NCBI GenBank assembly: GCA_037833965.1
Contig: AP031353.1
Location: 3,288,501-3,352,500, forward strand
DNA: 64,000 nucleotides
Origin: Marchantia polymorpha subsp. ruderalis
Lineage: Eukaryota > Streptophyta > Marchantiopsida > Marchantiales > Marchantiaceae
Reading direction: 5' to 3'
Part shown: one piece after another, positions 3,348 to 58,421 of the stretch
How positions within the stretch are numbered: the stretch's first letter is position 1
How the letters are laid out: every line of letters starts with the position of its first letter
Notes under the pieces: generated by a model
The model's database searches: none
What the model saw: the letters and a program-made list of their open reading frames with translations, nothing else
What the model was told of the DNA's origin: nothing
Position numbers and translations under genes: made by a program

Positions 3348-4293
3348 TGTAATAACCCACTAAAGGCTAAAACTGCAATATAGTGGTAGAAAGGTCGAAC
3401 CCACAGGGACAGAGGAACACACAAGGTACAAAGTGTCACGTTTTAACAGACTATTGAGGAGTTTGAATTCTCAGGCAACTGTCACTCCCAGAAATACTGC
3501 AAGTGTCCACTCGGAGCGCACTCGGAGGTCGCACAGTGCAGCGTAACACACACACACACACACCTGAAACTACAGAAACACAACCCAGAGATCCGTTAGG
3601 ACCTCTACTCAAGATTTCAGGGGGGAAGTCTCTCGCGAGCACACTCAGCGAAGCTGCGGGCAGTGGCTTCCAACTCCGGCTTTTACAACACTTCCACTAG
3701 CTTGCTGCTAGTGTAGGAAACCCGGTTTGGACTGCCTACTTCGGATCGAAGTCACTCCTACGCGGTGAACAACACTCTCAACTCACAAAACGCGCAGAGA
3801 ACACAGGTCCGCACTGAAGGACTCACTGTGAAACATTCCAGTAACACAACAACAGTCTATTGAAGAGTTTGAATTCTCAGGCACTTGTCATTCCCAGAAA
3901 TACTATAGGGGTTACCCTCAAGGCACCTGCTGCAGCGTAACCTGAATTTACAACCAAGGCTTACACGAAGTGGCAAAACTTCACTTTGGCATTCAGGGGA
4001 AAAAATCCCAAGGGAGTACAATCAGAAAGAAACACTCGAAGGTGTAGGGGCGAAACTGTTCAAGTATCTAACTAGTCACTGGCTCTGAGCATCGGCAGTC
4101 ACCCGCAGGTGCAGATCCGAACTACTCAAGTCTCTAACCAATGTACTAGCTCTGAACATTCGGCCGAAGGCCTTCAGCTACAAAATGCGGAACGCTAAGT
4201 TGTAACTCCTCCTGCGTGGTGACAGAACTCAAGGACACAAACACGCAAAGGAAATGGGTTCCTGATCTATACTTCTGAGTTTGGGAAAGAACC

Positions 4294-4324
4294 CCAGGCA
4301 AAACGCCTGGAACTATTTTATACC
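4294..4324 (-). promoter_or_regulatory. LTR core promoter: TATA box and hairpin (3' LTR)
   Basis: On the minus strand GGTATAAAATAG (4324-4313) lies 35 bp after the LTR ORF stop. It is followed by the hairpin CCAGGC-GTTTT-GCCTGG (4310-4294). Transcription should begin just beyond, which places the LTR ORF entirely in U3. Confidence 0.6.
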
Positions 4325-4358
4325 TTCTAAGTCCTAACTAGCACTACACTGCACTACG

Positions 4359-7300
4359 CTACACGCCTGCACGGAACCACGCTACACTACACTCCGCGGA
4401 ACCTGTACTACGTCTCCTGCGCGGCCGACTGCCGCGCACTAACTCCCTACCCTGCCAATCTTCCGCTCGACTGCGCAGTCCCAAACGCTGCAACGCCGCG
4501 GACACCTCCACTTCGAGGGCGGACATGGTATCCTGTGCCTTCGACAGAAAGGCATCGAGCTTCTTTGCTACCTTCCGCCGACTCCTACTGTCGCCTGACA
4601 ACAACCCGGCTGCGCGTAATTCAAACTCACGCAGTGTGAGTTTCTCCTGCGCCTTCACTTCCCAGTGGGCGTAGCCCTTGAGACAGTGGGCGACACGCCT
4701 CGCCGTCTCCACCTTCGTGCGATCCGCCTCCTTCCTGCGATCCTCTTCAATTATCACTAATTGCGATTCGGCTTCAGCACGTTGCGCTCTCAATTCGCCA
4801 CACTCTGACTGTAACCTGCGGATTAACTCTTCATCCGCCTGCCGTGCGAGCTGACATTGTTCCAACAACCGCGTCTGTCGCACGAGCTCCTCTGACAAAA
4901 TCCGATTCTGGGTCTGCTCAGAAATGAGTGCTTCCTTGACCTTCACCTGCTCCTTGGTGAGCTCGTCCAGTTTCTCATCCTTCATCTTCTCGGAGTGCTT
5001 GTAGAATTTCTGATTAAGCTTATACTGACCCCACAAGCATGCATGCTTCTCCTTCAATTCCCTCAACTCCTGGTCCACTCTAGCTAATAGCTTGCTGGTG
5101 TGGACTTTAGTGCGAGTCCGCCTGCGCACTAACTCGATGTAAGATCTCGGCTGGAGTGGGTCGGCGTATTTATCGACCTTGCGATCCAAGTACCTCAGCA
5201 ACGGAATCACCTGCTCAGAGAGCGCCGCCGCCGGCGCTCCAACAATTTCCTCCTCCTCCTCCTCGGTGTCTTCTGCTCCTGACATTTCTTCCGTGGAGCC
5301 TCCGTCGTCATCATCCGAGTGGAGAATTTCAGTCGCCATTGATTGCGTCGGCGACTGCCCCGAGTGGGGCTGCACGTCATCGACGTGTGCTGCCTGCGAA
5401 GGCACGGCTGCAGCCTCGCTGCTCGTCGCCAAAATGTCTAAGGCGGAAGGCGAATGTACCCGTGCGGCATCCCCGTCGCTCGCTTGATGGTTGTCTACCG
5501 CGTCCTCTCTGCCGCCGTCGCCCGCCGCCGAAGGCGATCGAGCGGAGGGTGGCTGCGCGGGGTTTGATTGCGCATCGCGCATCGAAATTTCATCCCGCGG
5601 ACAGTCACTCCGCTCCTCCGTCTGTTGCTGCTCCCTTGATCGGTCCGTGGAGGCTGTGCCCGGCCCGTGCGCAGGCGCAATTGCCGGCGCCTTGTCCGCC
5701 GCAGGCGTAGCGCCGCGGACATCCATCGCCGAAGGCGACATGGCCGGGGGCCGCTCGCCCGATGTCCCTTGGCCTATAGGCCCTACCGCCGAAGGCGCAT
5801 CTATCGGCGGACTTCCCGCCGATGGTGCGGCCTCCGCACGCTCCCTGCTCGTATCTCCTCGGCTCGAAGGCCCTGGCGCCGAAGGCGCGAATTGCGGCGC
5901 GTGGTGCGCCGGAGGGTCTGGCCCCGAGGGCCGGTGTCTCGTAGGCGGTTCTTCCGCCGGCTCCTTCCCCTTCCTACGTTGGAACAGGGGTGATTCTTGC
6001 CTGTGCACAGGCGGCACGTGTGGAGGTGTCCTGTGCACAGGCGACCTGTGCACAGGTGAGCGCCTGTGCACAGGCGGACTGCTCCTTCCCACGCGTAAGC
6101 GTAGATCCACGTCCACTTGTGATCGCCTGTCCGCGGAGGCTCGTCCGTCCGCGGAGGTTCGCCTGTGCGCAAACGGAACATCTGTCCGCATCGCACGTGG
6201 TAACTCCGGAGGCCCTTGGCCCGTAGGCGGCCTCTCTCCCGTCGAGGTTGCAGCGTGGCCCGTTGCTCCTACGGTCGTCCGCGCTTCCTCATGCTTCTCT
6301 GGCGACGCACTTCCTTTCTCCGTCGCAATCGTCGCCGTGTCCGCACTGTCGGCTGGTAACACCAGTCTGCGTGCCTTCTGCTTCGGCCGGCTGTATGACT
6401 CGCACAGCGGCCGCGGTCGAATGGGAGCAGAGGGTTCTTGATGCTGCTCCTCTTCAGACTCTTCCCTCCATCGCCGCTTCCGCGGCACTCGCGCTGCAGG
6501 AGTGTGTCTCCCTTCGTCCCTTCGCCTTGATGGGGTAGAAGTCGGTGACTCCTCTGCATCAGTGTCGACCTCATTCTCCCGCACATACTTCCCGGGATGG
6601 TCGATGGACAATGGCGGAAAATGTTCAAGCTCCGCCGCTGTCAAACAATTCCGCTGTCGATAAAAATTGATGAGGAAAGGAGAAAGATGGTTTAGAGTCC
6701 CCCCCTTCTCCTCAAACGCGTGCTGTCGCATCACCCTGTGCAGGATGCTCGCCCAGTGAATTGGAGTTCCCTCGATGACGCACTCCACAAAAGAGACCTG
6801 CCACAATGTGATGTAGCAGGCGCGGTGCGGCTGCAGTAATTGCATCAGCGCCGCGGACAAAGTCCGGCGAAATCGATCCTTGTAATCACGGGTCCTGTAC
6901 CCATTCTTGGTAGACCTCCCGGTCTTGAACAGCTCCACAAATTGCGCCTCTTCCTGCTTGGTCACCTTGATGCTCTCACTGTCGAAAAGGAGATGCCCTG
7001 GCATGCCAGCACATCTTCCCAACGCCTGCGCCCAATCTTGGACTGTCCACCGATCAACATGCGGACGCAATCCGCGCGAGGGTGGTCCCTGTGGCTCTAG
7101 CCACTCGCGCACCATATTCGCACAGATGTAGTTCCATCCCCATAGCAAGAAATCGAGCTTTCTTGCTATTAAGCGCTCCTCGAAAGCGCGCAGCCCGTTC
7201 TGTGGTAGGCGAAGTGGCACCATCCGCAATCTGCTCGGTCTCGTCATTGCGTTCCTGGGGTTCGTTCGCCCGCTCATTCTACTTCCGCACCGCCCGAGCT

Positions 7301-7499
7301 TCTTTCTCTCTCGGCAAACTCTAATCGCCCTCAATTCCAAATCACGCGCATTCACTTCTCCCTCAATCAACAAGAAATCTCCTGTGCGACGACGTCGAGA
7401 ATGTTCCGCAGCCAGCAGATGGATGCGCGCAGCGCGCACAAGAGATTGGAATCGCGAATTCAAGAATGGGACGTTCTCCGCCGCCCGGTCGAAGGTCAT
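4359..7499 (-). CDS. LTR U3-encoded 1046-aa protein of unknown function
   Basis: One uninterrupted ORF lies in the 3' LTR, in the same sense as gag-pol. Residues about 94-310 look globular and are the best conserved part between LTR subtypes, with LDFLLWGWN, a YRTRDYKDRF block, then GTPIHWASILHRVM and LNHLSPFLINFY. The pattern resembles the plant 'putative transposon protein' or mobile-domain type of sequence, but that link is only my impression. Residues about 310-730 are low complexity, rich in Pro, Arg and Ser, with PVHR repeats encoded by a DNA palindrome. An acidic stretch follows, then a long predicted coiled coil rich in Glu, Leu, Arg and Gln (roughly 790-1000) and a basic tail. There is no RT, integrase or zinc-knuckle motif. 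In the genomic RNA it would lie 3' of pol, like a retroviral accessory gene. Confidence 0.85.
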   Translation of the reverse strand: MTFDRAAENVPFLNSRFQSLVRAARIHLLAAEHSRRRRTGDFLLIEGEVNARDLELRAIRVCRERKKLGRCGSRMSGRTNPRNAMTRPSRLRMVPLRLPQNGLRAFEERLIARKLDFLLWGWNYICANMVREWLEPQGPPSRGLRPHVDRWTVQDWAQALGRCAGMPGHLLFDSESIKVTKQEEAQFVELFKTGRSTKNGYRTRDYKDRFRRTLSAALMQLLQPHRACYITLWQVSFVECVIEGTPIHWASILHRVMRQHAFEEKGGTLNHLSPFLINFYRQRNCLTAAELEHFPPLSIDHPGKYVRENEVDTDAEESPTSTPSRRRDEGRHTPAARVPRKRRWREESEEEQHQEPSAPIRPRPLCESYSRPKQKARRLVLPADSADTATIATEKGSASPEKHEEARTTVGATGHAATSTGERPPTGQGPPELPRAMRTDVPFAHRRTSADGRASADRRSQVDVDLRLRVGRSSPPVHRRSPVHRSPVHRTPPHVPPVHRQESPLFQRRKGKEPAEEPPTRHRPSGPDPPAHHAPQFAPSAPGPSSRGDTSRERAEAAPSAGSPPIDAPSAVGPIGQGTSGERPPAMSPSAMDVRGATPAADKAPAIAPAHGPGTASTDRSREQQQTEERSDCPRDEISMRDAQSNPAQPPSARSPSAAGDGGREDAVDNHQASDGDAARVHSPSALDILATSSEAAAVPSQAAHVDDVQPHSGQSPTQSMATEILHSDDDDGGSTEEMSGAEDTEEEEEEIVGAPAAALSEQVIPLLRYLDRKVDKYADPLQPRSYIELVRRRTRTKVHTSKLLARVDQELRELKEKHACLWGQYKLNQKFYKHSEKMKDEKLDELTKEQVKVKEALISEQTQNRILSEELVRQTRLLEQCQLARQADEELIRRLQSECGELRAQRAEAESQLVIIEEDRRKEADRTKVETARRVAHCLKGYAHWEVKAQEKLTLREFELRAAGLLSGDSRSRRKVAKKLDAFLSKAQDTMSALEVEVSAALQRLGLRSRAEDWQGRELVRGSRPRRRRSTGSAECSVAWFRAGV

Positions 7500-8744
7500 G
7501 GTCGGCTCTTGCTCGTGAAGAACGTCTCACTTGATGGCCGCGCCGGCTGTACGCTGGAACGGTCTTCGCTCTCACGCGCGGCTTCACGCTCCGCCGTCGT
7601 CGATTAAACTCTCACGCTCGAATTGGCGGGTTTGAACTCCGCGAGCGTATTACCCCGCGGACATGGGGGCGTAGCGCCGAAGGCGAGTTTTCCGCCTTGC
7701 GCGGTACACTTGTTCGTACCGCCCCTCGGCCAATCCCCCTTTGCCTTGACGCGTGTGTCCGCATGTCGGACAAAAGTTCAACTCCTGCCTGTGCGCAGGC
7801 AGGAGCCTCGGCGGATTCTCCGCCGGCGCGGAACTTGAACATCCTCCTGTGCACAGGCGTCCGCCTGTGCGCAGGCGAATTCCGTGCGCGGCGCTGCGCT
7901 GGCGCGGAAGGCGTTGACCGTGGTCAGCCGTCTCCGTCCAGTCTGTCCGTTCCTTGTCTCTTCGTCGGCGCTTCCGCCGCCGCAACTCCGTCCGTCCAAG
8001 AGCGCATCCACCCTTCCCGTCCGCATGGTCCGTACCGATTTGATTACTCTGGCGGCTCTTCCGCCGTACGCGGCGCGGTGCTGGCGCGGAAGGCGCCGTA
8101 CACTTTCTACCTCACAAGGCGCATTTCTAGGGCCCAAGGCGGATTTCCCGCCGACGCCGAAGCGCCTGTGCACAGGCGACCTGTGCGTAGGCGGACTTCG
8201 CGCCTCCCCTAACCCTACTTCGCCTGTGCACAGGCGAACGCCTTCGTCCGCGCATAGGACAAAACTTGATTCCCCCTTCCGCCGTAGGCGGAATTCGCGC
8301 CGGTGGCGAACTCCTTCCGCCGTAGGCGACCGCCTCCGTTTCTTCCAATAGTGATAACTCCCTAAGTCCTCATCCGTTCCAAGCGTTCTTGGACTCGTTG
8401 GAATCGGTGCGTCGAGCTCTTTCCAACGGGACCCTAACTTGGTCAAGGCGCCCGAGGGTTGACCTAATTATGGAGGGTTTCCCTACAGCCGCGGACGCAA
8501 CCTCCGAAGGCGGGTTTTGCGCCTTGCGTCGTAGGGGTCCTAACTGCAGAGCTCGCAGGGAGGGTGGTGCCTGTCCTTACTGCTGCAACCCAAATCCCAG
8601 ATTCTACAATATCCCTCGAGAATCCCCGCGATCTTCCGGATTCACTTCGTTTTGATGTACCGAAGGCTATTTACAATGCTGCCAGGGTACAGTTTTCCAA
8701 AAATGTTTTAATTTCCTCAAAATTGCCAAAAGTGGTGTACCACA

Positions 8745-8762
8745 TGCTCCCCTCCTCAATTG
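8745..8762 (-). other. Polypurine tract
   Basis: The minus strand reads CAATTGAGGAGGGGAGCA directly before the 3' LTR start. It is the expected plus-strand primer for reverse transcription and confirms the LTR boundary. Confidence 0.9.
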
Positions 8763-8781: not shown

Positions 8782-11613
8782 TCACATGTGGTATTTCTTC
8801 AACCGCCACCCGTTCACTCGGGTGCCTAACAAATCGCCGGCCAGGTCCGCAAGTTGGATGGATCCATTCGGGAAGACTTCGACAACCCTGTAAGGTCCCA
8901 TCCATCTTAGGTGCAGTTTGCCTGGGAATCTGGCATGCCTGCTGTCGTAGAGCAATGCCAAATCACCCGCCTGCAGGAGTACCGGTTTGATCTTTTTATC
9001 GTATCTCTCCTTTCGGCGGAGCTGGATTTTCCTGGTGCGATCTTCGGCGTCTCGTCTCCTCTCATCCAGCAGCGTGACCTCCTGTAACCTGTAGAGCTGA
9101 CTCTCCTCTGCGCCCATCCTCTGCAAATCCAACGTTCGTTGGGTGGGTACTTCAAATTCGATCGGGAGGATCGGGTGTTGCCCATACACCAGAAAGTATG
9201 GTGTCTGTTTGGTCGTGATCTTCTCAGCTGTCCGGTACGCCCATAGAGCGGCTGCTAGCTTTGTATCCCAGTCGTGAGCGTGATTCACCGTGACCTTGAG
9301 TAGTATTTTACACAGCAGACCATTGGACTTCTCCGTCAGTCCATTTGCCTTGGGATTGTATGGAGTAGTCTTCCGGTGCTTGATGTGGAAATACCGTGTC
9401 AGATCTTCGATGATCTGATTCAGAAAATGCGTGCCCCGGTCGCTGACTAGCTCTAAGGGACATCCGTAGCGTGTGATGATCGACTCAAACAAGAAGGCTG
9501 CCACTGTGGCAGCATCATCCCTTCTGGTGGCCCTGGCCTCTACCATTTTGGTGGCGTAGTCCGTTGCTACCAGAATGTAGCGCCTTCGTGTACTTCTAGT
9601 CACTGGTTGTATCGGCCCTACAAAGTCAATGCCCCACTTTTTGAAAGGTGCTAGAGGCATGATGGGAGTCAGGGGCCAGCGTGTTGTAGGCGTCGGTCTC
9701 CCCGTCCTCTGGCAACTGTCGCACTTGCGGATGTAATCGAGAACATCCTTAAACATGGTCGGCCACCAATACCCCGCATTTAGAATCTTTGTGACCGTGT
9801 TCCTGGTGGCATAGTGTCCACCCGCCTCCTCTGTATGCATCGCACTCACTATTCTTGGTACCTCTGATTCCTCCAGGCATCTGCATAAGCGCTCATTTGC
9901 CATCTTCTTGAACAAAACCCCCTGCTGGAGTTGGTACGGGCCTGCCTTATGAATAAAGACAGTTCGCTGTTCCAAATCCATGCCTACGGGACACTGGAGG
10001 GTTAGCAGATATCGATACAGGTCGGCATAGCGGGACTCATGTCCTGCAGACAATTGAAATAACTCTTCATCTGGAAAATCGTCCACCAATTCCTCCTCTG
10101 TCGGCTGGGTCCATAATCGGGACAAGTAATCCGCATTTTCGTGGTGCACCCCTTTCCTGGTCTGGACTGTGTAGGTGAACTCTTGTAGTAATAACACCCA
10201 CCTGGCGATCCGACCGGATAGGTCGGCTTTCTTGACTAGGTGTTGCAATGCGTAGTGGTCCACATGGAACACAAACTCGTAGCAGATTAGGTAGTGACGG
10301 AACTTTTTACAGGAGTACACCATCCCCAACGCTTCTCTCTCCGTCGTGGTGTACTTCCGCTCTGCTAGAGACAGCTGTCGGCTCGCGAAGTAGATCGGGT
10401 AGTCCTTTTTGTTGTCATCCTTTTGACTCAGCACTACACCGATGGCGAAGGCAGATGTGTCAACGTAAACATGGAATGGTCGATTCCAGTCTGGACTCCT
10501 TAGTACGGGAGCAGTCGTGAGTTTCGCTTTAAGAGCCTCAAATGCTGACTGCTGGTTCGCACCCCAAGCATAAGGCTCGTCCTTCTTCAACAACTTGGTC
10601 AGGTCCGCCGCCAGTATTGCATACAGGTGTATGAATCTTCGGTAGTAGCCCACATGACCCAGGAATGCTCGCAGCTCTCTTAGATTCGTGGGTGGCTCAA
10701 GCTCGAGTATAACCTTGACCTTCTCGATGTCCACCGCAATGCCGTCTGCCGAGACCCGATGACCCAACAAGATCCCACTAGTCATAAAGAAAAAGCACTT
10801 CTCGGGATGCAGTGATAAACTGCTCTCTCTACATTTATCGAAGGTCTGCTTCAAGTGACTTAGGTGTTCAGACCGCTTCCCAAAGACACAGAAGTCATCT
10901 ATGAATATTTCCAGGAACTTCCTCAGTTGTTCCTGGAAGATATTGGTCATCATCCGTTGAAAGGTGGCAGGCGCGTTGCACAGACCGAAGGGCATCTTGT
11001 GGTATGCGTAAGTTCCCCAGTCGGTTGTGAACGTAGTTTTATCCTTGTCCTGTTCCCGGATAGACACCTGGTTGTAACCTGAGAACCCATCCAGGAAGCT
11101 ATAACATTCATGTCTTGCGACATGGTCTAGAATGGCATCCGTGAATGGTAACGGGTGATGATCCTTGCGTGTTGCTGCATTCAACTTCCGGAAATCCTGA
11201 CACACTCGTATCTTACCCGTCAACTTCTTGGGTACGATAACAATCGGCGACACCCACTCACTGCTGAGCACAGGGTAAATAATACCAGCACTCAAGTACT
11301 TATCTATCTCCTCCTTAACTAGCAAGGAGTATTTTGGGTTGAGGCGATACTGGCGCTGTCGTATGGGTACTGAGTCGTCCAGTAAATCGATACGGTGTTC
11401 CCCATACCGTGCAGGTATCCCCTTCATGTCTTCGATCTTCCAGGCGAAGACGTCGACATAATGGCTAAGGAATGCCTGTACTTTCCTTAGCTCGTCTCCT
11501 CTCACTGCGCTTGATACCTTCAAGCACTTGTCGGGACTGAGTTGTACTTCGTGACAGTCACTAGGGTCGACAATGCCCTCGGTGTGACTCGTCTCACTCC
11601 TTCCCAGTCCCAC
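8782..11613 (-). CDS. pol: Pol: reverse transcriptase, RNase H, integrase
   Basis: An open stretch of 943 codons. RT occupies about residues 90-250, with SEWVSPIVIVPKK, YSFLDGFSGYNQ and the catalytic FIDD at 237-240 (a YIDD variant). RNase H follows at about 350-500, with its first Asp in HVYVDTSAF. Integrase has the zinc-binding H593/H600/C631/C634 and a DD35E core at D663, D725 and E761. The frame has no ATG at its start: the nominal first codon is GTG and the first Met is residue 63. It is in the same frame as Gag-protease and separated from it by a single TAG, so it is most likely made as a readthrough fusion. The stop is about 40 bp from the polypurine tract. No chromodomain is recognisable. 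Confidence 0.95.
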   Translation of the reverse strand: MGLGRSETSHTEGIVDPSDCHEVQLSPDKCLKVSSAVRGDELRKVQAFLSHYVDVFAWKIEDMKGIPARYGEHRIDLLDDSVPIRQRQYRLNPKYSLLVKEEIDKYLSAGIIYPVLSSEWVSPIVIVPKKLTGKIRVCQDFRKLNAATRKDHHPLPFTDAILDHVARHECYSFLDGFSGYNQVSIREQDKDKTTFTTDWGTYAYHKMPFGLCNAPATFQRMMTNIFQEQLRKFLEIFIDDFCVFGKRSEHLSHLKQTFDKCRESSLSLHPEKCFFFMTSGILLGHRVSADGIAVDIEKVKVILELEPPTNLRELRAFLGHVGYYRRFIHLYAILAADLTKLLKKDEPYAWGANQQSAFEALKAKLTTAPVLRSPDWNRPFHVYVDTSAFAIGVVLSQKDDNKKDYPIYFASRQLSLAERKYTTTEREALGMVYSCKKFRHYLICYEFVFHVDHYALQHLVKKADLSGRIARWVLLLQEFTYTVQTRKGVHHENADYLSRLWTQPTEEELVDDFPDEELFQLSAGHESRYADLYRYLLTLQCPVGMDLEQRTVFIHKAGPYQLQQGVLFKKMANERLCRCLEESEVPRIVSAMHTEEAGGHYATRNTVTKILNAGYWWPTMFKDVLDYIRKCDSCQRTGRPTPTTRWPLTPIMPLAPFKKWGIDFVGPIQPVTRSTRRRYILVATDYATKMVEARATRRDDAATVAAFLFESIITRYGCPLELVSDRGTHFLNQIIEDLTRYFHIKHRKTTPYNPKANGLTEKSNGLLCKILLKVTVNHAHDWDTKLAAALWAYRTAEKITTKQTPYFLVYGQHPILPIEFEVPTQRTLDLQRMGAEESQLYRLQEVTLLDERRRDAEDRTRKIQLRRKERYDKKIKPVLLQAGDLALLYDSRHARFPGKLHLRWMGPYRVVEVFPNGSIQLADLAGDLLGTRVNGWRLKKYHM

Positions 11614-11628
11614 AGTTAATTGCTATTC
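11614..11628 (-). promoter_or_regulatory. Stop-codon readthrough site UAG-CAA-UUA
   Basis: The minus strand reads GAA TAG CAA TTA ACT across the Gag-protease stop (TAG at 11625-11623). UAG-CARYYA is the established leaky context of tobamovirus-type readthrough, and CAA-UUA is its classic form. The downstream pol frame is the same frame and lacks an initiator ATG, so readthrough is the natural way to express it. Confidence 0.75.
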
Positions 11629-14454
11629 GTCTTCCGGCTGAATAGCTTCCGGCTCTTCTTCTTCTCCCACCGAACAGCAGGCAACGAATCCCACGAAATA
11701 ATCGGATTCGGTACCACTGGAATCCGATCGCGCGGTCGACTCACTGTCCCCGCCCGATGTGTAACCTGCACTTGTCGATGGGGTCTCTCCTTCGTGTCTG
11801 ACCCTATTCCAGGGCACCGTAATGGTTTTGGTCGGTTCCGAAGGATGGGGAAACTTAAGGCGATGCCTTCGCCAATCACATCTGACTTGTGCGCCATATA
11901 GCCACGGTCGCCCGAGCAGAACGTCATAGCCCTGCTTCATCATCGGTTGAAGGATGATATACGTCAACCGAAAGTCCGCACCCCCGATGATTGTCTTGAC
12001 ATTGCGCAGCATACCTGCAGGCATTCTCCGCGTCTGATCCGCTAATCTCAACACACGCTTCGAGGGTTCGTATTGACTGAACCCCAAGGCTCTCGCGGTA
12101 TCCTCCGTCATTATGTTGACTCCTGATCCAGAGTCGATTGGCACCCTGCGTACACAACACCCTGCTATTTCCACATCGATCTCTGGTGGCCCTTGGTCTT
12201 CGCTCTCCACTTGATATACTTGAGAGGATGTGGATGCGCGCGTCTTCCGTGGACGCCGTAGCGAAAGCATCAACATTCTCCGATACGTCTTATTGTCCTC
12301 CAAGAGCTGCTTGAACGTGATGTTCACTTTTCGACTCCCGAGATCTTCGACCAAGTCATAGTGGGCGCGTTGGGTCGCCGGGGTCGGCGACGCTCTGCGA
12401 GGTTCCACGGTGGCTGCCAACTTCGCCCCAAGGGAGGATGTCAAGTCTGGCCGCGGTGGGTCCTTTTGAGTGCGGATCGCTTCCTTCAACAGGTTGGTTA
12501 CCTCGTTGCGGATATCCGGAGCATAGTCCCGTTTCAGCAAGCGTACTGGTTCGTCCTCGACTGCTGTCTGGGGGCGCACTGCTGGTGCCTCTCGCGTAGC
12601 CGAAGACTTCCGAGCAGGTCGCAAGTCGGACTTGCTGGATGTCTTCTCCTTCCCTTTTCCCGTCCGGTCGTCGGTTCTCCGTTCGTGCTTGCGAGTGTCA
12701 CGCTCTTGCTCCTTCGATTTCTTGGAACTACGAGTTTCGACCCGTGCGCACATAACCTCTTCCGCCGGCCATTCTTCGTCTTCGTCATCCCCGTCTGAAC
12801 CTACTTCGACCTGGTTAACTTGGACGTCCTCCTTGGCAGGAGGGTTCACAAATCGTACCGCTGGCCGAGGGACTGGTGGCTGATCACACTCTGGCGCAGT
12901 ATGCCCGGTCTTCTTGCAATTACTACATGTCGGAACATAATCGTTTCGCCTTTTTGGATGGGGACACTGCGGTGAGAAGTGTCCAACTTCCCCGCAATTA
13001 TAACAAGCTCGCGGTGGCGGTGGGTCAAACGTCCCTGGGGGTGCTCTCCGCCTCACGGGTACTGTAGTGGCCCGATCCACCGGATGATATCGTGGGACTT
13101 GCATTGCTGAAACTGCAGTAGGGGTAGGAACCGACTGGACGGCGTAGGCTGTCTCTTCGCTAGCCTCTCCATAGTACTGGGGGTGCTCTCCATAGTACGG
13201 TTGTGCCCACTCTAATGCGTTGACTGGATATGACGGACGGGTGGTAAGGCACTCGGTGTTTGCATGTCCCACCGCCCCGCACGTAGTACACCATAAGTTC
13301 GCTCGCACTCTCCCGGGTGATTTTCGGCGATCATGCCCGCCTACCACTTGAACCTTGAGATCGGCGAAGTCCTTCACAAGGGTCTCCATCTTCGAGGCTA
13401 TGTCTCCCGGCGCTCTGTCCGTAGTCACTCGTCGGGTGCCCTTTTTCTTCGCTGCCCCATGCTTCTTCCTCTTCTTCTCCTCCTCCGACGATGAGGTTTC
13501 CTCTTCTTCGGATGAGGAACGGTTCTCGTCCGAAGACGATTCCTCCGATGACGGAGTTGTACCTCTACGTCGTCTTCGCCCTCCCTTCGGTTTTCGCTCC
13601 TTCGACTCCCGTCTCTCTCTCCCTCTTCGGTTGAGAGTGGAAGTTTCGAAGGCTTCTGCCGATGCAATCACATCCTCAATAGTGTCGCACTTGCTGCGTC
13701 GGCAAAAAGTCTCCATCTCCCGAGTTAAACCGGTCACGTACCAATCCACAGCTTGTTGTACCGAGAAAGGGGACCCTGGTCCTGTTTTTGGTATTCTGTC
13801 AAGGAGGTCCAGAAATCTCTCAGTGTAGTCACGCAGACTCTCCTTCTTTTCTTGCTGCAAATTACGCAACTTTGTCAAAACCCGGCTGTCGTAGCCGAGC
13901 TCGCGGAAGCGGCGAAGGAACTTCTCCTTCAGCTGGGCCCATGTTGTCAACCCAGTCGGATCGATGCTCTCGTGATTGTACCAACTCCTCGCTTTCTTCC
14001 GCAGAAGGCTTGGAAAGATCCTTAGTCGGTCGTCGTCTGCGATCTCGCGATTGGCAATAGACACCGATTCGAACAACTTGATGTATGAATCTGCATCGTC
14101 GTCATCCCCACTCCCTTTATACTTTGGGTAGGAATGTTTAGTAATCGGCTGAGGTAGCCGCACATTGGCTTGTCCGTCCGCCATCGGTGTGTCTGTCGAC
14201 GGTTCTCGAGCGGTCGTTTCTAATTCACGAGGCGGGTCCGTGCAAGGAATATCTAGTAGAACTGTAAGCACCAAGTTTGGTTCCGAGTCGCCGGGGGTAG
14301 GTTCCCCAAGGATGTCGGCCGAACTAGGCTTAGGTACGCTTTTTGGTGTTTTCTTGTTTTGACGCCGTGTCTCTTCCACGGCCTTCTCTGAATCTCGTCG
14401 GAACCTGCGGACAGCTCTAGCACTTAGGTTGCTCCCGCTAGCCCCAGTCGACAT
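11623..14454 (-). CDS. gag-pro: Gag-protease polyprotein
   Basis: A 943-aa ORF. Residues about 109-270 form a retrotransposon Gag core (WYNHES, TWAQLKEKFLRRF, LRDYTERFLDLLDR). A Ser/Glu- and Arg-rich stretch follows at about 275-345. Three CCHC zinc knuckles lie at C389-C402, C484-C497 and C510-C523, each CX2CX4HX4C. A charged linker leads to an aspartic protease with the catalytic DSGSG at 774-778 and a YDVLLGRPW strand near 845. The start ATG lies about 48 bp beyond the primer-binding site, so the leader between the LTR and gag is short. It ends at the leaky TAG that precedes pol. It would form the particle and mature the polyprotein. Confidence 0.95.
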   Translation of the reverse strand: MSTGASGSNLSARAVRRFRRDSEKAVEETRRQNKKTPKSVPKPSSADILGEPTPGDSEPNLVLTVLLDIPCTDPPRELETTAREPSTDTPMADGQANVRLPQPITKHSYPKYKGSGDDDDADSYIKLFESVSIANREIADDDRLRIFPSLLRKKARSWYNHESIDPTGLTTWAQLKEKFLRRFRELGYDSRVLTKLRNLQQEKKESLRDYTERFLDLLDRIPKTGPGSPFSVQQAVDWYVTGLTREMETFCRRSKCDTIEDVIASAEAFETSTLNRRGRERRESKERKPKGGRRRRRGTTPSSEESSSDENRSSSEEEETSSSEEEKKRKKHGAAKKKGTRRVTTDRAPGDIASKMETLVKDFADLKVQVVGGHDRRKSPGRVRANLWCTTCGAVGHANTECLTTRPSYPVNALEWAQPYYGEHPQYYGEASEETAYAVQSVPTPTAVSAMQVPRYHPVDRATTVPVRRRAPPGTFDPPPPRACYNCGEVGHFSPQCPHPKRRNDYVPTCSNCKKTGHTAPECDQPPVPRPAVRFVNPPAKEDVQVNQVEVGSDGDDEDEEWPAEEVMCARVETRSSKKSKEQERDTRKHERRTDDRTGKGKEKTSSKSDLRPARKSSATREAPAVRPQTAVEDEPVRLLKRDYAPDIRNEVTNLLKEAIRTQKDPPRPDLTSSLGAKLAATVEPRRASPTPATQRAHYDLVEDLGSRKVNITFKQLLEDNKTYRRMLMLSLRRPRKTRASTSSQVYQVESEDQGPPEIDVEIAGCCVRRVPIDSGSGVNIMTEDTARALGFSQYEPSKRVLRLADQTRRMPAGMLRNVKTIIGGADFRLTYIILQPMMKQGYDVLLGRPWLYGAQVRCDWRRHRLKFPHPSEPTKTITVPWNRVRHEGETPSTSAGYTSGGDSESTARSDSSGTESDYFVGFVACCSVGEEEEPEAIQPEDE

Positions 14455-14501: not shown

Positions 14502-14519
14502 TCCCCGGCAGCGGCGCCA
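14502..14519 (-). other. Primer-binding site (tRNA-Asp type)
   Basis: The minus strand reads TGGCGCCGCTGCCGGGGA, 22 bp inside the 5' LTR. Plant Tat/Athila-like elements use nearly this sequence, with GTT in place of GCT, as a site complementary to the tRNA-Asp 3' end. Confidence 0.88.
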
Positions 14520-15487
14520 AAAAGAAGTTGTCGGCTTCTTATGTAATAACCCACTAAAGGCTAAAACTGCAATATAGTGGTAGAAAGGTCGAACCCACAG
14601 GGACAGAGGAACACACAGGGTACAAAGTGTCACGTTTTAACAGACTATTGAGGAGTTTGAATTCTCAGGCAACTGTCACTCCCAGAAATACTGCAAGTGT
14701 CCACTCGGAGCGCACTCGGAGGTCGCACAGTGCAGCGTAACACACACACACACACACCTGAAACTACAGAAACACAACCCAGAGATCCGTTAGGACCTCT
14801 ACTCAAGATTTCAGGGGGGAAGTCTCTCGCGAGCACACTCAGCGAAGCTGCGGGCAGTGGCTTCCAACTCCGGCTTTTACAACACTTCCACTAGCTTGCT
14901 GCTAGTGTAGGAAACCCGGTTTGGACTGCCTACTTCGGATCGAAGTCACTCCTACGCGGTGAACAACACTCTCAACTCACAAAACGCGCAGAGAACACAG
15001 GTCCGCACTGAAGGACTCACTGTGAAACATTCCAGTAACACAACAACAGTCTATTGAAGAGTTTGAATTCTCAGGCACTTGTCATTCCCAGAAATACTAT
15101 AGGGGTTACCCTCAAGGCACCTGCTGCAGCGTAACCTGAATTTACAACCAAGGCTTACACGAAGTGGCAAAACTTCACTTTGGCATTCAGGGGAAAAAAT
15201 CCCAAGGGAGTACAATCAGAAAGAAACACTCGAAGGTGTAGGGGCGAAACTGTTCAAGTATCTAACTAGTCACTGGCTCTGAGCATCGGCAGTCACCCGC
15301 AGGTGCAGATCCGAACTACTCAAGTCTCTAACCAATGTACTAGCTCTGAACATTCGGCCGAAGGCCTTCAGCTACAAAATGCGGAACGCTAAGTTGTAAC
15401 TCCTCCTGCGTGGTGACAGAACTCAAGGACACAAACACGCAAAGGAAATGGGTTCCTGATCTATACTTCTGAGTTTGGGAAAGAACC

Positions 15488-15518
15488 CCAGGCAAAACGC
15501 CTGGAACTATTTTATACC
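15488..15518 (-). promoter_or_regulatory. Core promoter of the 5' LTR
   Basis: GGTATAAAATAG lies at 15518-15507 on the minus strand and the CCAGGC/GCCTGG hairpin at 15504-15488. This copy should drive the genomic transcript of the complete element, starting just downstream of the LTR ORF. Confidence 0.65.
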
Positions 15519-15552
15519 TTCTAAGTCCTAACTAGCACTACACTGCACTACG

Positions 15553-18500
15553 CTACACGCCTGCACGGAACCACGCTACACTACACTCCGCGGAACCTGT
15601 ACTACGTCTCCTGCGCGGCCGACTGCCGCGCACTAACTCCCTACCCTGCCAATCTTCCGCTCGACTGCGCAGTCCCAAACGCTGCAACGCCGCGGACACC
15701 TCCACTTCGAGGGCGGACATGGTATCCTGTGCCTTCGACAGAAAGGCATCGAGCTTCTTTGCTACCTTCCGCCGACTCCTACTGTCGCCTGACAACAACC
15801 CGGCTGCGCGTAATTCAAACTCACGCAGTGTGAGTTTCTCCTGCGCCTTCACTTCCCAGTGGGCGTAGCCCTTGAGACAGTGGGCGACACGCCTCGCCGT
15901 CTCCACCTTCGTGCGATCCGCCTCCTTCCTGCGATCCTCTTCAATTATCACTAATTGCGATTCGGCTTCAGCACGTTGCGCTCTCAATTCGCCACACTCT
16001 GACTGTAACCTGCGGATTAACTCTTCATCCGCCTGCCGTGCGAGCTGACATTGTTCCAACAACCGCGTCTGTCGCACGAGCTCCTCTGACAAAATCCGAT
16101 TCTGGGTCTGCTCAGAAATGAGTGCTTCCTTGACCTTCACCTGCTCCTTGGTGAGCTCGTCCAGTTTCTCATCCTTCATCTTCTCGGAGTGCTTGTAGAA
16201 TTTCTGATTAAGCTTATACTGACCCCACAAGCATGCATGCTTCTCCTTCAATTCCCTCAACTCCTGGTCCACTCTAGCTAATAGCTTGCTGGTGTGGACT
16301 TTAGTGCGAGTCCGCCTGCGCACTAACTCGATGTAAGATCCCGGCTGGAGTGGGTCGGCGTATTTATCGACCTTGCGATCCAAGTACCTCAGCAACGGAA
16401 TCACCTGCTCAGAGAGCGCCGCCGCCGGCGCTCCAACAATTTCCTCCTCCTCCTCCTCGGTGTCTTCTGCTCCTGACATTTCTTCCGTGGAGCCTCCGTC
16501 GTCATCATCCGAGTGGAGAATTTCAGTCGCCATTGATTGCGTCGGCGACTGCCCCGAGTGGGGCTGCACGTCATCGACGTGTGCTGCCTGCGAAGGCACG
16601 GCTGCAGCCTCGCTGCTCGTCGCCAAAATGTCTAAGGCGGAAGGCGAATGTACCCGTGCGGCATCCCCGTCGCTCGCTTGATGGTTGTCTACCGCGTCCT
16701 CTCTGCCGCCGTCGCCCGCCGCCGAAGGCGATCGAGCGGAGGGTGGCTGCGCGGGGTTTGATTGCGCATCGCGCATCGAAATTTCATCCCGCGGACAGTC
16801 ACTCCGCTCCTCCGTCTGTTGCTGCTCCCTTGATCGGTCCGTGGGGGCTGTGCCCGGCCCGTGCGCAGGCGCAATTGCCGGCGCCTTGTCCGCCGCAGGC
16901 GTAGCGCCGCGGACATCCATCGCCGAAGGCGACATGGCCGGGGGCCGCTCGCCCGATGTCCCTTGGCCTATAGGCCCTACCGCCGAAGGCGCATCTATCG
17001 GCGGACTTCCCGCCGATGGTGCGGCCTCCGCACGCTCCCTGCTCGTATCTCCTCGGCTCGAAGGCCCTGGCGCCGAAGGCGCGAATTGCGGCGCGTGGTG
17101 CGCCGGAGGGTCTGGCCCCGAGGGCCGGTGTCTCGTAGGCGGTTCTTCCGCCGGCTCCTTCCCCTTCCTACGTTGGAACAGGGGTGATTCTTGCCTGTGC
17201 ACAGGCGGCACGTGTGGAGGTGTCCTGTGCACAGGCGACCTGTGCACAGGTGAGCGCCTGTGCACAGGCGGACTGCTCCTTCCCACGCGTAAGCGTAGAT
17301 CCACGTCCACTTGTGATCGCCTGTCCGCGGAGGTTCGCCTGTGCGCAAACGGAACATCTGTCCGCATCGCACGTGGTAACTCCGGAGGCCCTTGGCCCGT
17401 AGGCGGCCTCTCTCCCGTCGAGGTTGCAGCGTGGCCCGTTGCTCCTACGGTCGTCCGCGCTTCCTCATGCTTCTCTGGCGACGCACTTCCTTTCTCCGTC
17501 GCAATCGTCGCCGTGTCCGCACTGTCGGCTGGTAACACCAGTCTGCGTGCCTTCTGCTTCGGCCGGCTGTATGACTCGCACAGCGGCCGCGGTCGAATGG
17601 GAGCAGAGGGTTCTTGATGCTGCTCCTCTTCAGACTCTTCCCTCCATCGCCGCTTCCGCGGCACTCGCGCTGCAGGAGTGTGTCTCCCTTCGTCCCTTCG
17701 CCTTGATGGGGTAGAAGTCGGTGACTCCTCTGCATCAGTGTCGACCTCATTCTCCCGCACATACTTCCCGGGATGGTCGATGGACAATGGCGGAAAATGT
17801 TCAAGCTCCGCCGCTGTCAAACAATTCCGCTGTCGATAAAAATTGATGAGGAAAGGAGAAAGATGGTTTAGAGTCCCCCCCTTCTCCTCAAACGCGTGCT
17901 GTCGCATCACCCTGTGCAGGATGCTCGCCCAGTGAATTGGAGTTCCCTCGATGACGCACTCCACAAAAGAGACCTGCCACAATGTGATGTAGCAGGCGCG
18001 GTGCGGCTGCAGTAATTGCATCAGCGCCGCGGACAAAGTCCGGCGAAATCGATCCTTGTAATCACGGGTCCTGTACCCATTCTTGGTAGACCTCCCGGTC
18101 TTGAACAGCTCCACAAATTGCGCCTCTTCCTGCTTGGTCACCTTGATGCTCTCACTGTCGAAAAGGAGATGCCCTGGCATGCCAGCACATCTTCCCAACG
18201 CCTGCGCCCAATCTTGGACTGTCCACCGATCAACATGCGGACGCAATCCGCGCGAGGGTGGTCCCTGTGGCTCTAGCCACTCGCGCACCATATTCGCACA
18301 GATGTAGTTCCATCCCCATAGCAAGAAATCGAGCTTTCTTGCTATTAAGCGCTCCTCGAAAGCGCGCAGCCCGTTCTGTGGTAGGCGAAGTGGCACCATC
18401 CGCAATCTGCTCGGTCTCGTCATTGCGTTCCTGGGGTTCGTTCGCCCGCTCATTCTACTTCCGCACCGCCCGAGCTTCTTTCTCTCTCGGCAAACTCTAA

Positions 18501-18675
18501 TCGCCCTCAATTCCAAATCACGCGCATTCACTTCTCCCTCAATCAACAAGAAATCTCCTGTGCGACGACGTCGAGAATGTTCCGCAGCCAGCAGATGGAT
18601 GCGCGCAGCGCGCACAAGAGATTGGAATCGCGAATTCAAGAATGGGACGTTCTCCGCCGCCCGGTCGAAGGTCAT
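15553..18675 (-). CDS. LTR U3-encoded 1040-aa protein of unknown function (5' LTR copy)
   Basis: This is the 5' LTR counterpart of the ORF at 4359-7499. It is intact and six residues shorter because an 18-bp unit (Gly-Arg-Ala-Ser-Ala-Asp type) is missing. The few amino-acid differences from the 3' LTR copy are all in the low-complexity middle or linker. In the 5' LTR it lies upstream of the TATA box and so should be absent from the genomic RNA. Expression from this copy would need a promoter in the first 1.2 kb of U3, where I recognise no clear TATA box. Confidence 0.85.
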   Translation of the reverse strand: MTFDRAAENVPFLNSRFQSLVRAARIHLLAAEHSRRRRTGDFLLIEGEVNARDLELRAIRVCRERKKLGRCGSRMSGRTNPRNAMTRPSRLRMVPLRLPQNGLRAFEERLIARKLDFLLWGWNYICANMVREWLEPQGPPSRGLRPHVDRWTVQDWAQALGRCAGMPGHLLFDSESIKVTKQEEAQFVELFKTGRSTKNGYRTRDYKDRFRRTLSAALMQLLQPHRACYITLWQVSFVECVIEGTPIHWASILHRVMRQHAFEEKGGTLNHLSPFLINFYRQRNCLTAAELEHFPPLSIDHPGKYVRENEVDTDAEESPTSTPSRRRDEGRHTPAARVPRKRRWREESEEEQHQEPSAPIRPRPLCESYSRPKQKARRLVLPADSADTATIATEKGSASPEKHEEARTTVGATGHAATSTGERPPTGQGPPELPRAMRTDVPFAHRRTSADRRSQVDVDLRLRVGRSSPPVHRRSPVHRSPVHRTPPHVPPVHRQESPLFQRRKGKEPAEEPPTRHRPSGPDPPAHHAPQFAPSAPGPSSRGDTSRERAEAAPSAGSPPIDAPSAVGPIGQGTSGERPPAMSPSAMDVRGATPAADKAPAIAPAHGPGTAPTDRSREQQQTEERSDCPRDEISMRDAQSNPAQPPSARSPSAAGDGGREDAVDNHQASDGDAARVHSPSALDILATSSEAAAVPSQAAHVDDVQPHSGQSPTQSMATEILHSDDDDGGSTEEMSGAEDTEEEEEEIVGAPAAALSEQVIPLLRYLDRKVDKYADPLQPGSYIELVRRRTRTKVHTSKLLARVDQELRELKEKHACLWGQYKLNQKFYKHSEKMKDEKLDELTKEQVKVKEALISEQTQNRILSEELVRQTRLLEQCQLARQADEELIRRLQSECGELRAQRAEAESQLVIIEEDRRKEADRTKVETARRVAHCLKGYAHWEVKAQEKLTLREFELRAAGLLSGDSRSRRKVAKKLDAFLSKAQDTMSALEVEVSAALQRLGLRSRAEDWQGRELVRGSRPRRRRSTGSAECSVAWFRAGV

Positions 18676-19920
18676 GGTCGGCTCTTGCTCGTGAAGAACG
18701 TCTCACTTGATGGCCGCGCCGGCTGTACGCTGGAACGGTCTTCGCTCTCACGCGCGGCTTCACGCTCCGCCGTCGTCGATTAAACTCTCACGCTCGAATT
18801 GGCGGGTTTGAACTCCGCGAGCGTATTACCCCGCGGACATGGGGGCGTAGCGCCGAAGGCGAGTTTTCCGCCTTGCGCGGTACACTTGTTCGTACCGCCC
18901 CTCGGCCAATCCCCCTTTGCCTTGACGCGTGTGTCCGCATGTCGGACAAAAGTTCAACTCCTGCCTGTGCGCAGGCAGGAGCCTCGGCGGATTCTCCGCC
19001 GGCGCGGAACTTGAACATCCTCCTGTGCACAGGCGTCCGCCTGTGCGCAGGCAAATTCTGTGCGCGGCGCTGCGCTGGCGCGGAAGGCGTTGACCGTGGT
19101 CAGCCGTCTCCGTCCAGTTTGTCCGTTCCTTGTCTCTTTGTCGGCGCTTCCGCCGCCGCAACTCCGTCCGTCCAAGAGCGCATCCACCCTTCCCGTCCGC
19201 ATGGTCCGTACCGATTTGATTACTCTGGCGGCTCTTCCGCCGTACGCGGCGCGGTGCTGGCGCGGAAGGCGCCGTACACTTTCTACCTCACAAGGCGCAT
19301 TTCTAGGGCCCAAGGCGGATTTCCCGCCGACGCCGAAGCGCCTGTGCACAGGCGACCTGTGCGTAGGCGGACTTCGCGCCTCCCCTAACCCTACTTCGCC
19401 TGTGCACAGGCGAACGCCTTCGTCCGCGCATAGGACAAAACTTGATTCCCCCTTCCGCCGTAGGCGGAATTCGCGCCGGTGGCGAACTCCTTCCGCCGTA
19501 GGCGACCGCCTCCGTTTCTTCCAATAGTGATAACTCCCTAAGTCCTCATCCGTTCCAAGCGTTCTTGGACTCGTTGAAATCGGTGCGTCGAGCTCTTTCC
19601 AACGGGACCCTAACTTGGTCAAGGCGCCCGAGGGTTGACCTAATTATGGAGGGTTTCCCTACAGCCGCGGACGCAACCTCCGAAGGCGGGTTTTGCGCCT
19701 TGCGTCGTAGGGGTCCTAACTGCAGAGCTCGCAGGGAGGGTGGTGCCTGTCCTTACTGCTGCACCCCAAATCCCAGATTCTACAATATCCCTCGAGAATC
19801 CCCGCGATCTTCCGGATTCACTTCGTTTTGATGTACCGAAGGCTATTTACAATGCTGCCAGGGTACAGTTTTCCAAAAATGTTTTAATTTCCTCAAAATT
19901 GCCAAAAGTGGTGTACCACA

Positions 19921-33535: not shown

Positions 33536-34779
33536 TGTGGTACCCCACTTTTGGCAATTTTGAGGAAATTAAAACATTTTTGAAAAACTGTACCCTGGCA
33601 GCATTGTGAATAGCCTTCGGTACATCAAAACAGAGTGAATCCGGAAGATCGCGGGGATTCTCGAGGGATCTTGTAGAATCTGGGATTTGGGGTGCCGCAG
33701 TAAGGACAGGCACCACCCTCCCTGCGAGCTCCGCAGTTAGGATCTCTACAGCGGAAGGCGCAAAATCCGCCTTCGGAGGTTGCGTCCGCGGCTGTAGGGG
33801 AACCCCCGTAATTAGGTAAACCCTCGGGCGCCTTGACCAAGTTGGATCCCGTTGGAAAGAGCTCGACGCGCTGATTCCAACGAGCCCAAGAACGCTTGGA
33901 ACGGACGAGGACTTAGGGAGTTATCGCTACGGGAAGAAACGGAGGCGGTCGCCTACGGCGGAAGGAGTTCGCCACCGGCGCGAATTCCGCCTACGCTGAA
34001 GGGGGATTCAAGTTTTGTCCTATGCGCGGGCGAAGGCGTTCGCCTGTGCACAGGCGAAGTAGGGTTAGGGAAGGCGCGAAGTCCGCCTACGCACAGGCGT
34101 TCGCCTGTGCACAGGCACTTCGGCGTCGGCGGAGAATCCGCCTTGGGCCCTAGAAATGCGCCTTGGGAGGTAGAAAGTGTACGGCGCCTTCCGCGCCAGC
34201 GCAGCGCCGCGTACGTCGGAAGAGCCGCCAAGTAATCCAATAGGTACGGACCGTGCGGACGGCACGGGTGGATGCGCTCTTGGACGGACGGAGTTGCGGC
34301 GGCGGAAGCGCCAACGGAGAGACAAGGAACGGACAGACTGGACGGAGACGGCTGACCACGGTCAACGCCTTCCGCGCCAGCGTAGCGCCGCGGACGAAAT
34401 TCGCCTGCGCACAGGCGAACGCCTGTGCACAGGAGGATGTTCAAGTTCCGCGCCGGCGGAGAATCCGCCGAGGCCCCTGCCTGCGCACAGGCAGGAGTTG
34501 AATTTTTGTCCGACATGCGGACACACGCGTCAAGGCAGAAGGAGATTGGCCGAGGGGCGGTACGAACAAGTGTACCGCGCAAGGCGGAAAACTCGCCTTC
34601 GGCGCTACGCCCCCATGTCCGGAGGGTGACACGCTCGCGGAGTTCAAATCCGCCAATTCGAGCGTGAGAGTTTAATCGACGACGGCGGAGCGTGAAGCCG
34701 CGCGTGAGAGCGAAGACCGTTCCAGCGTACAGCCGGCGCGGCCATCAAGTGAGACGTTCTTCACGACCAAGAGACGACC

Positions 34780-37932: not shown

Positions 37933-37968
37933 CGTAGTGCAGTGTAGTGCTAGGTAGGACTTAGAAGG

Positions 37969-37997
37969 TATAAAATAGTTCCAGGCGTTTTGCCTGG
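37969..37997 (+). promoter_or_regulatory. LTR core promoter: TATA box and hairpin (solo LTR)
   Basis: GGTATAAAATAG is followed by CCAGGC-GTTTT-GCCTGG at 37981-37997. This promoter could still drive transcription into R-U5 and the adjoining DNA. Confidence 0.55.
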
Positions 37998-58392: not shown

Positions 58393-58421
58393 GATAGCGT
58401 AGTGCTAGTTAGGATCTTTGT

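What the first reader, a model, noticed from the sequence alone, without database searches (positions are those of the whole stretch)
3348..8744. A 1046-codon accessory gene inside the U3 of 5.4 kb LTRs
Both LTRs of the complete element, its duplicate and a solo LTR carry an intact ORF of 1040-1050 codons in the same sense as gag-pol. It lies upstream of the TATA box, so it is in U3 and appears in genomic RNA only at the 3' end. Retroviral genes such as MMTV sag or HIV nef overlap U3, but a gene this large fully inside a plant LTR is, to my knowledge, unusual. The conserved N-terminal domain and coiled coil, with change concentrated in the low-complexity linker, suggest selection on the protein.
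Basis: partly seen in the sequence, partly recalled or inferred. Interest (0 to 1): 0.88.

Follow-up and report, generated by a model that had tools for sequence, protein, structure and literature searches.

The report
Large gene inside retrotransposon's long repeats
In what appears to be a Marchantia liverwort, a very common jumping gene carries a protein-coding gene of roughly 960 codons inside the repeated ends that normally only hold its on/off switches, and that gene shows the marks of natural selection on its protein, although what the protein does is not known.

Summary
A Ty3/gypsy-type element on the minus strand (3348-19920, 5-bp target duplication ACTGC) has 5.4-kb LTRs; each carries a complete ORF that ends 36 nt before the TATA box, so it lies in U3. 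The listed 'duplicate' is not independent: it belongs to a ~55.8-kb segmental duplication. Independent support: 26 further genomic loci (at least 25 insertion sites; 12 solo LTRs with matching 5-bp flanks) and a second, strongly diverged LTR family (F) with the same layout. The protein is under purifying selection: between the window's solo LTR and the 3' LTR dN/dS is 0.26 overall and 0.02 in the N-terminal domain (14 synonymous, 1 replacement); the indels there keep frame. The conserved start is codon 85 (window 7247), giving ~962 rather than 1046 codons. A U3 block of ~45 nt upstream of the ORF is conserved between families (weakly in F), consistent with a promoter of the gene's own. All named homologues found are from Marchantia polymorpha; no Pfam family fits. 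Best reading: an LTR-embedded accessory gene, perhaps a self-contained unit with promoter and terminator, making a probably nuclear coiled-coil protein. Function, expression and fold are unproven.

The parts
14542..19920 (-). 5' LTR of the complete element (U3-R-U5)
   Evidence: 99.5% to the 3' LTR; ends and TSD
3348..8744 (-). 3' LTR of the complete element; also fetched as locus L012
4359..7499 (-). U3 ORF in the 3' LTR, 1046 codons from the first ATG
   Evidence: U3 position
4359..7247 (-). Probable real gene: conserved start codon 85 to stop, 962 codons
6570..7220 (-). Conserved N-terminal domain (residues 94-310), dN/dS 0.02
4359..5219 (-). C-terminal part with long coiled coil (residues 761-1046; helix 803-966)
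7539..7599 (-). Non-coding U3 block conserved between families (LTR positions 1146-1206), candidate promoter or leader element of the ORF
4313..4322 (-). TATA box of the genomic-RNA promoter, downstream of the ORF stop
15553..18675 (-). U3 ORF in the 5' LTR, 1040 codons (18-nt in-frame difference from the 3' LTR)
33536..38942 (+). Solo LTR, TSD TGTCA
34780..37932 (+). U3 ORF of the solo LTR, 1050 codons
21720..24774 (+). Truncated LTR with the 3' part of the ORF (open from 21754 to 23769)
11623..14454 (-). gag-protease ORF, ends in UAG
8782..11613 (-). pol ORF in the same frame (RT, RNase H, integrase; no chromodomain match)
14502..14519 (-). Primer-binding-site-like TGGCGCCGCTGCCGGGGA, 22 nt from the LTR end
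   Evidence: tRNA-Asp assignment recalled
8745..8757 (-). Polypurine tract
54478..59208 (+). LTR of the diverged family F (interrupted by the copy of the main element), with its own U3 ORF 55839-58392 (frame-shifted here) and TATA at 58425
59209..64000 (-). Segmental-duplication copy of the 3' LTR with the ORF at 60220-63360; not independent

Best explanation
It is a protein-coding accessory gene that lives wholly inside the U3 of the LTRs of an abundant non-chromodomain Ty3/gypsy lineage, in a genome whose named relatives at this gene are all Marchantia. Shown: the gene is in U3, in sense, in both LTRs and in solo LTRs, in two diverged families of the window, and its protein is under purifying selection, strongest in the N-terminal domain of about 225 residues. 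Inferred: it is expressed from its own start site in U3, just upstream of the ORF where a non-coding block is conserved between families, and is terminated in R/U5 of the same LTR, so that an LTR, solo ones included, can be a complete gene. Inferred: the protein dimerises through its coiled coil, enters the nucleus (conserved basic clusters) and acts in trans on the element's own chromatin, transcription or integration, as proposed for nuclear accessory proteins of other plant retrotransposons. Because reverse transcription copies one U3 into both LTRs (established for the class), each insertion carries two copies of the gene, linked to the control region it may act on.
For: U3 position: ORF stop before the TATA box in the main family and in F. 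Of 30 fetched main-family loci 12 are solo LTRs with matching 5-bp flanks, 12 are 5' LTRs, 3 are 3' LTRs, 3 truncated or other; two of the 5' LTRs and two of the 3' LTRs are the window's element and its segmental copy, and two of the other 26 (L028, L035) share one insertion site. Selection: 3' LTR vs solo LTR dN/dS 0.258; N-terminal domain 14 synonymous vs 1 replacement; N/S 0.85 against 2.34 expected from the non-coding LTR spectrum, P 3e-8, N-domain P 3e-7. DNA-picked sample of 14 copies: 28 distinct synonymous, 10 replacement and 1 stop change in the N-domain; changes in more than one copy 7 vs 0; P 2e-8. ORF indels 3 of 3 multiples of 3, outside the ORF 8 of 36; window copies alone: 3 of 3 inside, 2 of 9 outside. 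dS (0.091) exceeds non-coding LTR divergence (0.048 in the 5' part of U3, 0.017 in R-U5), so DNA-level constraint does not explain the open frame. Family F keeps the protein at 47% identity. Conserved U3 block: A vs L042 score 51 and A vs L045 score 54 against shuffle maxima of 33 and 32, 0 of 200 reached. No donor-like motif [CA]AG|GTRAG in the element, which speaks against splicing. Basic clusters at 339, 371 and 1025, the first two largely conserved across families.
Against: No transcript or protein was seen. The donor scan used one strict motif. No TATA-like hexamer lies in U3 upstream of the ORF, so a promoter there would be TATA-less. In F the block is weak: F vs L042 score 31 against a shuffle maximum of 30, A vs F 34 against 33, and F vs L045 was reached by 36 of 200 shuffles. 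The N-domain fold was not resolved (mean pLDDT 45.6), so no biochemical activity can be named. Many copies are dead: 13 of 44 scored main-family copies and 25 of 58 scored F copies carry stops, and these sets were picked by protein score. Singletons and shared variants did not differ significantly in N/S in the protein-picked set (Fisher P 0.18). The C-terminal part passes only at P 0.03.
Confidence: 0.6

Rival explanations
1. The ORF is the third gene of the element in the env/aORF position, expressed from the genomic RNA by splicing or by internal initiation at its 3' end; the polypurine tract merely lies upstream of it, so that the gene was swallowed by the LTR.
For: In genomic RNA the ORF lies only at the 3' end, downstream of pol, the usual place of sense aORFs (PMC7264820, parts 1-2 of 3 read). 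Splicing of such genes is reported there for barley Bagy2.
Against: No donor-like motif in the element (one strict pattern). The pol stop is ~1.5 kb upstream of codon 85. No membrane-spanning stretch (largest 19-residue mean hydropathy 1.14). The conserved block just upstream of the ORF fits a start site better. 7 of the 12 solo LTRs have no stop in the ORF, but they are recent and were picked by protein score, so this weighs little.
Confidence: 0.22
2. The ORF is a host gene or another transposon's gene captured by an LTR lineage and carried along without function in transposition.
For: No named homologue outside Marchantia and no Pfam family; captures of host sequence by plant retrotransposons are known (PMC7264820).
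Against: Present in many diverged families (matched stretches at 45-95% to P0014, 47% between main family and F) with purifying selection. The 88 hits of the N-domain profile are Marchantia polymorpha models or unnamed contigs, none with a precomputed Pfam domain; one (P0087) bears a UniRef name that begins 'Integrase c', as expected of a model that runs into a retroelement.
Confidence: 0.1
3. The ORF is open by composition and its conservation reflects constraint on DNA or RNA (for example packaging or enhancer sequence) and not on protein.
For: GC-rich sequence (58-60%) favours long ORFs; antisense ORFs of about 300 codons overlap it.
Against: Synonymous sites change faster than the non-coding LTR; N/S is 2.3- to 34-fold below the non-coding expectation in the N-domain, linker and C-terminal part; ORF indels keep frame.
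Confidence: 0.03

Closest known systems
Sense aORF/eORF between pol and 3' LTR of plant elements (Athila, SIRE env-like; PMC7264820, PMC6317226)
   Same: Extra sense gene downstream of pol in genomic RNA, little similarity to anything known
   Different: Those are described in the internal region; this one lies wholly in U3 and so is present twice per element and in solo LTRs; no transmembrane segment
Antisense aORFs of Retand, Grande (GENE23), RIRE2 and PvRetro13 (Transposase_28 / SMC-like)
   Same: Plant LTR-retrotransposon accessory proteins; GENE23 is described as nuclear with a promoter of its own and PvRetro13 ORF2 as having an SMC domain (PMC7264820); SMC, Mis12 and mitotic-checkpoint type matches are listed for Retand ORFs (PMC11963269, passages)
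   Different: Antisense and internal; Transposase_28 was not found in this genome by HMM (where no control rang either) nor in these proteins
MMTV sag and HIV nef (recalled)
   Same: Retroviral genes that overlap U3 of the 3' LTR
   Different: Much shorter; made from spliced RNA (recalled); no homology tested or expected. A comparison of position only

Membership tests
LTR retrotransposon, Ty3/gypsy | Two LTRs, TSD, PPT, gag, PR, then RT-RNase H-integrase in that order | tested here: met
Chromovirus | Chromodomain after integrase | tested here: not met
   No chromodomain match in the pol ORF at E<=1
Tat (OTA) | Additional RNase H domain | tested here: not met
   One RNase H region in pol (two overlapping Pfam matches, 350-479) and none in gag-pro, by Pfam only
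Athila (OTA) | RT-RH-INT phylogeny with Athila; ATHILA ORF-1 domain in part of members | not tested
   No reference pol set at hand; the PF03078 genome search did not complete, although PF03078 did not show up in hmmscan of the ORF; PBS resemblance is recalled
Plant eORF families (PMD PF10536, Transposase_28 PF04195, Transposase_32 PF20167) | HMM match in the ORF | tested here: inconclusive
   Not among the matches of 31 proteins at E<=1 or of 7 N-domain sequences at E<=10, where only DUF7175 came up once at 0.089; none in the genome, but no control rang. A profile-profile test was not possible
env-like genes | Transmembrane segment | tested here: not met
   Largest 19-residue mean hydropathy 1.14
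LTR-encoded gene (sag/nef-like in position) | Coding sequence in U3, upstream of the TATA box | tested here: met
   position only

The most novel reading that the evidence does not exclude
In this lineage the LTR itself is a self-contained gene: own promoter, a ~960-codon ORF and a terminator, so that each insertion delivers two gene copies, solo LTRs stay expression-competent, and the protein acts on the LTRs that encode it. The retrotransposon would thus keep its regulator inside its own control region, in very many copies.
Probability: 0.45. Interest if true: 0.85.

Novelty: new variant of a known kind. Interest (0 to 1): 0.7.

Why it matters
LTRs are treated as non-coding control regions and solo LTRs as relics. 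A selected gene of this size inside U3 means that solo LTRs can carry open genes, that masking LTRs as non-coding hides protein genes, and that part of such an LTR is not neutral for dating insertions. It also gives a tractable case (Marchantia) for the open question of what the extra genes of plant LTR retrotransposons do.

Tried and rejected
Structure: AlphaFold2 on the whole ORF with 31 sequences gave mean pLDDT 51.3, useful only for the coiled coil; the N-domain alone with 18 sequences gave 45.6; Foldseek of that model against the PDB gave nothing (71 matches with E up to 10, none at E<=0.001, best E 1.2 with probability 0.04). No PDB sequence match at E<=1. Weak Pfam hits (for example Inj_translocase, Extensin_1, CENP-K, SKG6) were rejected as below the cut-off shown or seen in one of 31 members, and as compositional. 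I recalled a resemblance of the N-domain to Transposase_32 (PF20167); it could not be confirmed and is not claimed. Self-priming from the LTR as an explanation of the 22-nt spacer before the PBS: longest complementary word 8 nt, rejected. The comparison of singletons with shared variants in protein-picked copies was not significant and that sample is biased, so the argument rests on the window's solo LTR and the DNA-picked sample. A bacterial promoter scan of U3 does not apply to a plant and was not used. Literature: searches listed no paper that I recognised from title and abstract as being on a gene inside a plant LTR (one search's one hit concerns MMTV); these are phrase searches of open-licence papers only, and most listed papers were not opened.
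Full report
What was claimed and what is there. The window holds a complete LTR element on the minus strand: 5' LTR 19920-14542, gag-protease ORF 14454-11623, pol ORF 11613-8782 in the same frame, polypurine tract, 3' LTR 8744-3348, with the target duplication ACTGC on both sides. Both LTRs contain a long ORF in the sense of gag-pol (1040 and 1046 codons), as does a solo LTR with its own target duplication TGTCA (33536-38942, 1050 codons). In LTR coordinates the ORF spans 1246-4386 of 5397 and the TATA box is at 4423; the same TATA-centred sequence occurs at nine places in the window. The ORF is in U3 by the promoter criterion; the transcription start itself was not mapped.

Independence of the copies. 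It is not an independent insertion. The complete element sits inside an LTR of a different family (F).

The gene in the genome. The genome (241.5 Mb, nine contigs) is unnamed. All named homologues of the ORF are Marchantia polymorpha proteins (4 of 4; 26 of 28, the other two from unnamed contigs; all named ones among 88 hits, the rest from unnamed contigs). A P0014 search gave one match at 95% and the other listed matches at 45-84%, so the genome is probably a Marchantia that differs from the annotated M. polymorpha strain; that is inference. The ORF has 13,592 first-look candidates in the genome, of which 44 were scored; these are 98-100% identical over essentially the full length, 31 of 44 without a stop, four of them the window's element and its copy. 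For family F 58 were scored (two of them the window's), 33 of 58 without a stop. Of the 30 main-family loci fetched with flanks, 12 are solo LTRs with matching 5-bp flanks, 12 are 5' LTRs followed by the PBS region, 3 are 3' LTRs preceded by pol, and 3 are truncated or otherwise; four of the 30 are the window's own element and its segmental copy. Of the other 26, L028 (solo) and L035 (5' LTR) share their upstream flank and so one insertion site, leaving at least 25 sites as far as the flanks tell; an upstream flank is host sequence only in solo and 5' LTRs. This shows by structure, not only by position in one element, that the gene is part of the LTR.

Selection. Between the 3' LTR and the window's solo LTR, which was not picked by any search, the ORF has 65 synonymous and 55 replacement differences (dN/dS 0.258); by region: first 93 codons 0.54, N-terminal domain (94-310) 0.02 (14 vs 1), linker 0.33, C-terminal part 0.30. 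Against a null built from the substitution spectrum of the non-coding LTR (CpG-aware), N/S is 0.85 where 2.34 is expected (P 3e-8); N-domain P 3e-7, linker P 0.001, C-terminal part P 0.03, first 93 codons P 0.44. In 14 copies fetched by DNA similarity of the U3 leader (L046 and L053-L065 of the 20 loci so fetched; the six dropped were the window's element and its copy, or already in the protein-picked set), distinct changes in the N-domain are 28 synonymous, 10 replacement and 1 stop; those in more than one copy are 7 and 0 (P 2e-8). Two of the 14 carry a one-base indel, as expected of dead copies. In 29 LTRs (of 32 sequences; L012, L013 and L015 dropped as the window's own or segmental copies) ORF indels are 3 of 3 multiples of three, non-coding indels 8 of 36; that set was picked by protein score and is biased toward intact frames. 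In the window alone it is 3 of 3 inside and 2 of 9 outside. In the protein-picked set N/S of singletons (0.99) and of variants in three or more copies (0.60) did not differ significantly (Fisher P 0.18). Synonymous divergence exceeds that of the non-coding LTR, so a DNA-level constraint does not explain the open frame.

Start of the gene. Family F begins with ATG at 55839 (MSKVPQLRVSPLRVPQIGLRAF), several M. polymorpha models begin at the same place, and loci L042, L044 and L045 have stops upstream of the matching ATG (L043 has ATA there). The match in the main family is codon 85, window 7247. The leader of 84 codons is open in the main family but shows no significant constraint. The gene is thus about 962 codons.

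A conserved non-coding block. Upstream of the start codon the families align poorly except for a block at LTR positions 1146-1190 (window 7599-7555), found 169-213 nt upstream of the ATG in L042 and L045. Local alignment scores of 51 and 54 compare with shuffle maxima of 33 and 32 in 200 shuffles each. F shows it at the edge of significance (F vs L042 31 against 30; A vs F 34 against 33, LTR positions 1151-1206) or not at all (F vs L045 24, reached by 36 of 200). L042-L045 belong to related families, so they are not independent witnesses. Variation among main-family copies is lowest in U3 at 1126-1275 (0.08 per site against 0.15-1.0 in the other windows upstream of the ORF). I read this as the core of a promoter or leader of the ORF; that is inference.

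The protein. N-terminal domain of about 225 residues, mostly helical in both weak models, with conserved motifs such as GLRAF, WGWN, LGRCAG, RTRDYKDR.RR, WQV.FVE and NHLSPFLI.FY; disordered proline/serine/alanine-rich linker of variable length; conserved motif QV.PLLRYLDRK and a long helix (803-966), confident to about residue 930, read as a coiled coil; basic C-terminus. Basic clusters PRKRRW and RPKQKARR are largely conserved across families and look like a nuclear localisation signal by eye. No transmembrane stretch. No Pfam match over its cut-off, no PDB sequence or fold match.

How it most likely works. The absence of a splice-donor-like motif (one strict pattern), the distance from pol, and the conserved block upstream of the ORF favour an mRNA that starts in U3 and ends in R/U5 of the same LTR. 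Every intact LTR would then be a complete gene. The architecture (domain, linker, coiled coil, basic clusters) resembles in outline nuclear accessory proteins of other plant elements, such as GENE23 of Grande and the SMC-like ORF2 of PvRetro13 described in PMC7264820 (parts 1 and 2 of 3 read). A role in trans on the element's chromatin, transcription or integration is my preferred but unproven reading.

Comparison with what is known. Neumann et al. 2019 (PMC6317226; [quoted passage not shown] the passages seen do not describe genes inside LTRs, but I did not read the whole text. The 2020 review describes additional ORFs of the internal region. Retand (PMC11963269, two passages) has antisense Transposase_28 ORFs, a domain said there to be known only from flowering plants. 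Position in U3 is shared with MMTV sag and HIV nef (recalled). Searches listed no paper that I recognised as reporting a gene inside a plant LTR; phrase searches cannot prove absence. Hence: a known kind (extra gene of a plant LTR retrotransposon) in an unusual place.

Limits.

Noticed in passing
window 11617-11625 (-): gag-protease ends in UAG CAA UUA and pol continues in the same frame: the leaky-stop context known from tobacco mosaic virus (recalled), which suggests stop-codon readthrough for making Gag-Pol.
   Followed up: partly
window 14502-14541 (-): The PBS-like sequence lies 22 nt from the LTR end, and the spacer TAAGAAGCCGACAACTTCTTTT holds the inverted repeat AAGAAG/CTTCTT; the 12 loci classed as 5' LTRs all begin the spacer alike. 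How the right end of the DNA is trimmed is unclear.
   Followed up: partly
window 4294-4310 (-), 2582 ff, 20414 ff, 58425 ff (+): Just downstream of the TATA box a short hairpin CCAGGC-GTTTT-GCCTGG recurs, with CAAGGC/GCCTTG in family F and some other copies, a paired change on both sides.
   Followed up: no
window 1-8139 and 55844-64000, with flanks L009-L011: Tandem segmental duplication of about 55.8 kb at 99.7-100% identity; the second copy of the element has an extra insertion of about 7.4 kb.
   Followed up: partly
L028 and L035 (contig C7, about 0.11 Mb apart): A solo LTR and a 5' LTR share the same upstream flank (273 nt at 99.6%): probably one insertion in a duplicated segment, of which one copy later became a solo LTR.
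   Followed up: partly
window 44357-46693 (-): A gag-protease-like ORF of another retrotransposon family (weak Retrotrans_gag and protease matches below cut-off).
   Followed up: no
window 19926-20500: Nested LTR ends: the F LTR resumes after the main element and is followed by the end of another LTR and the 3' end of a further ORF copy with its TATA box at 20414.
   Followed up: no
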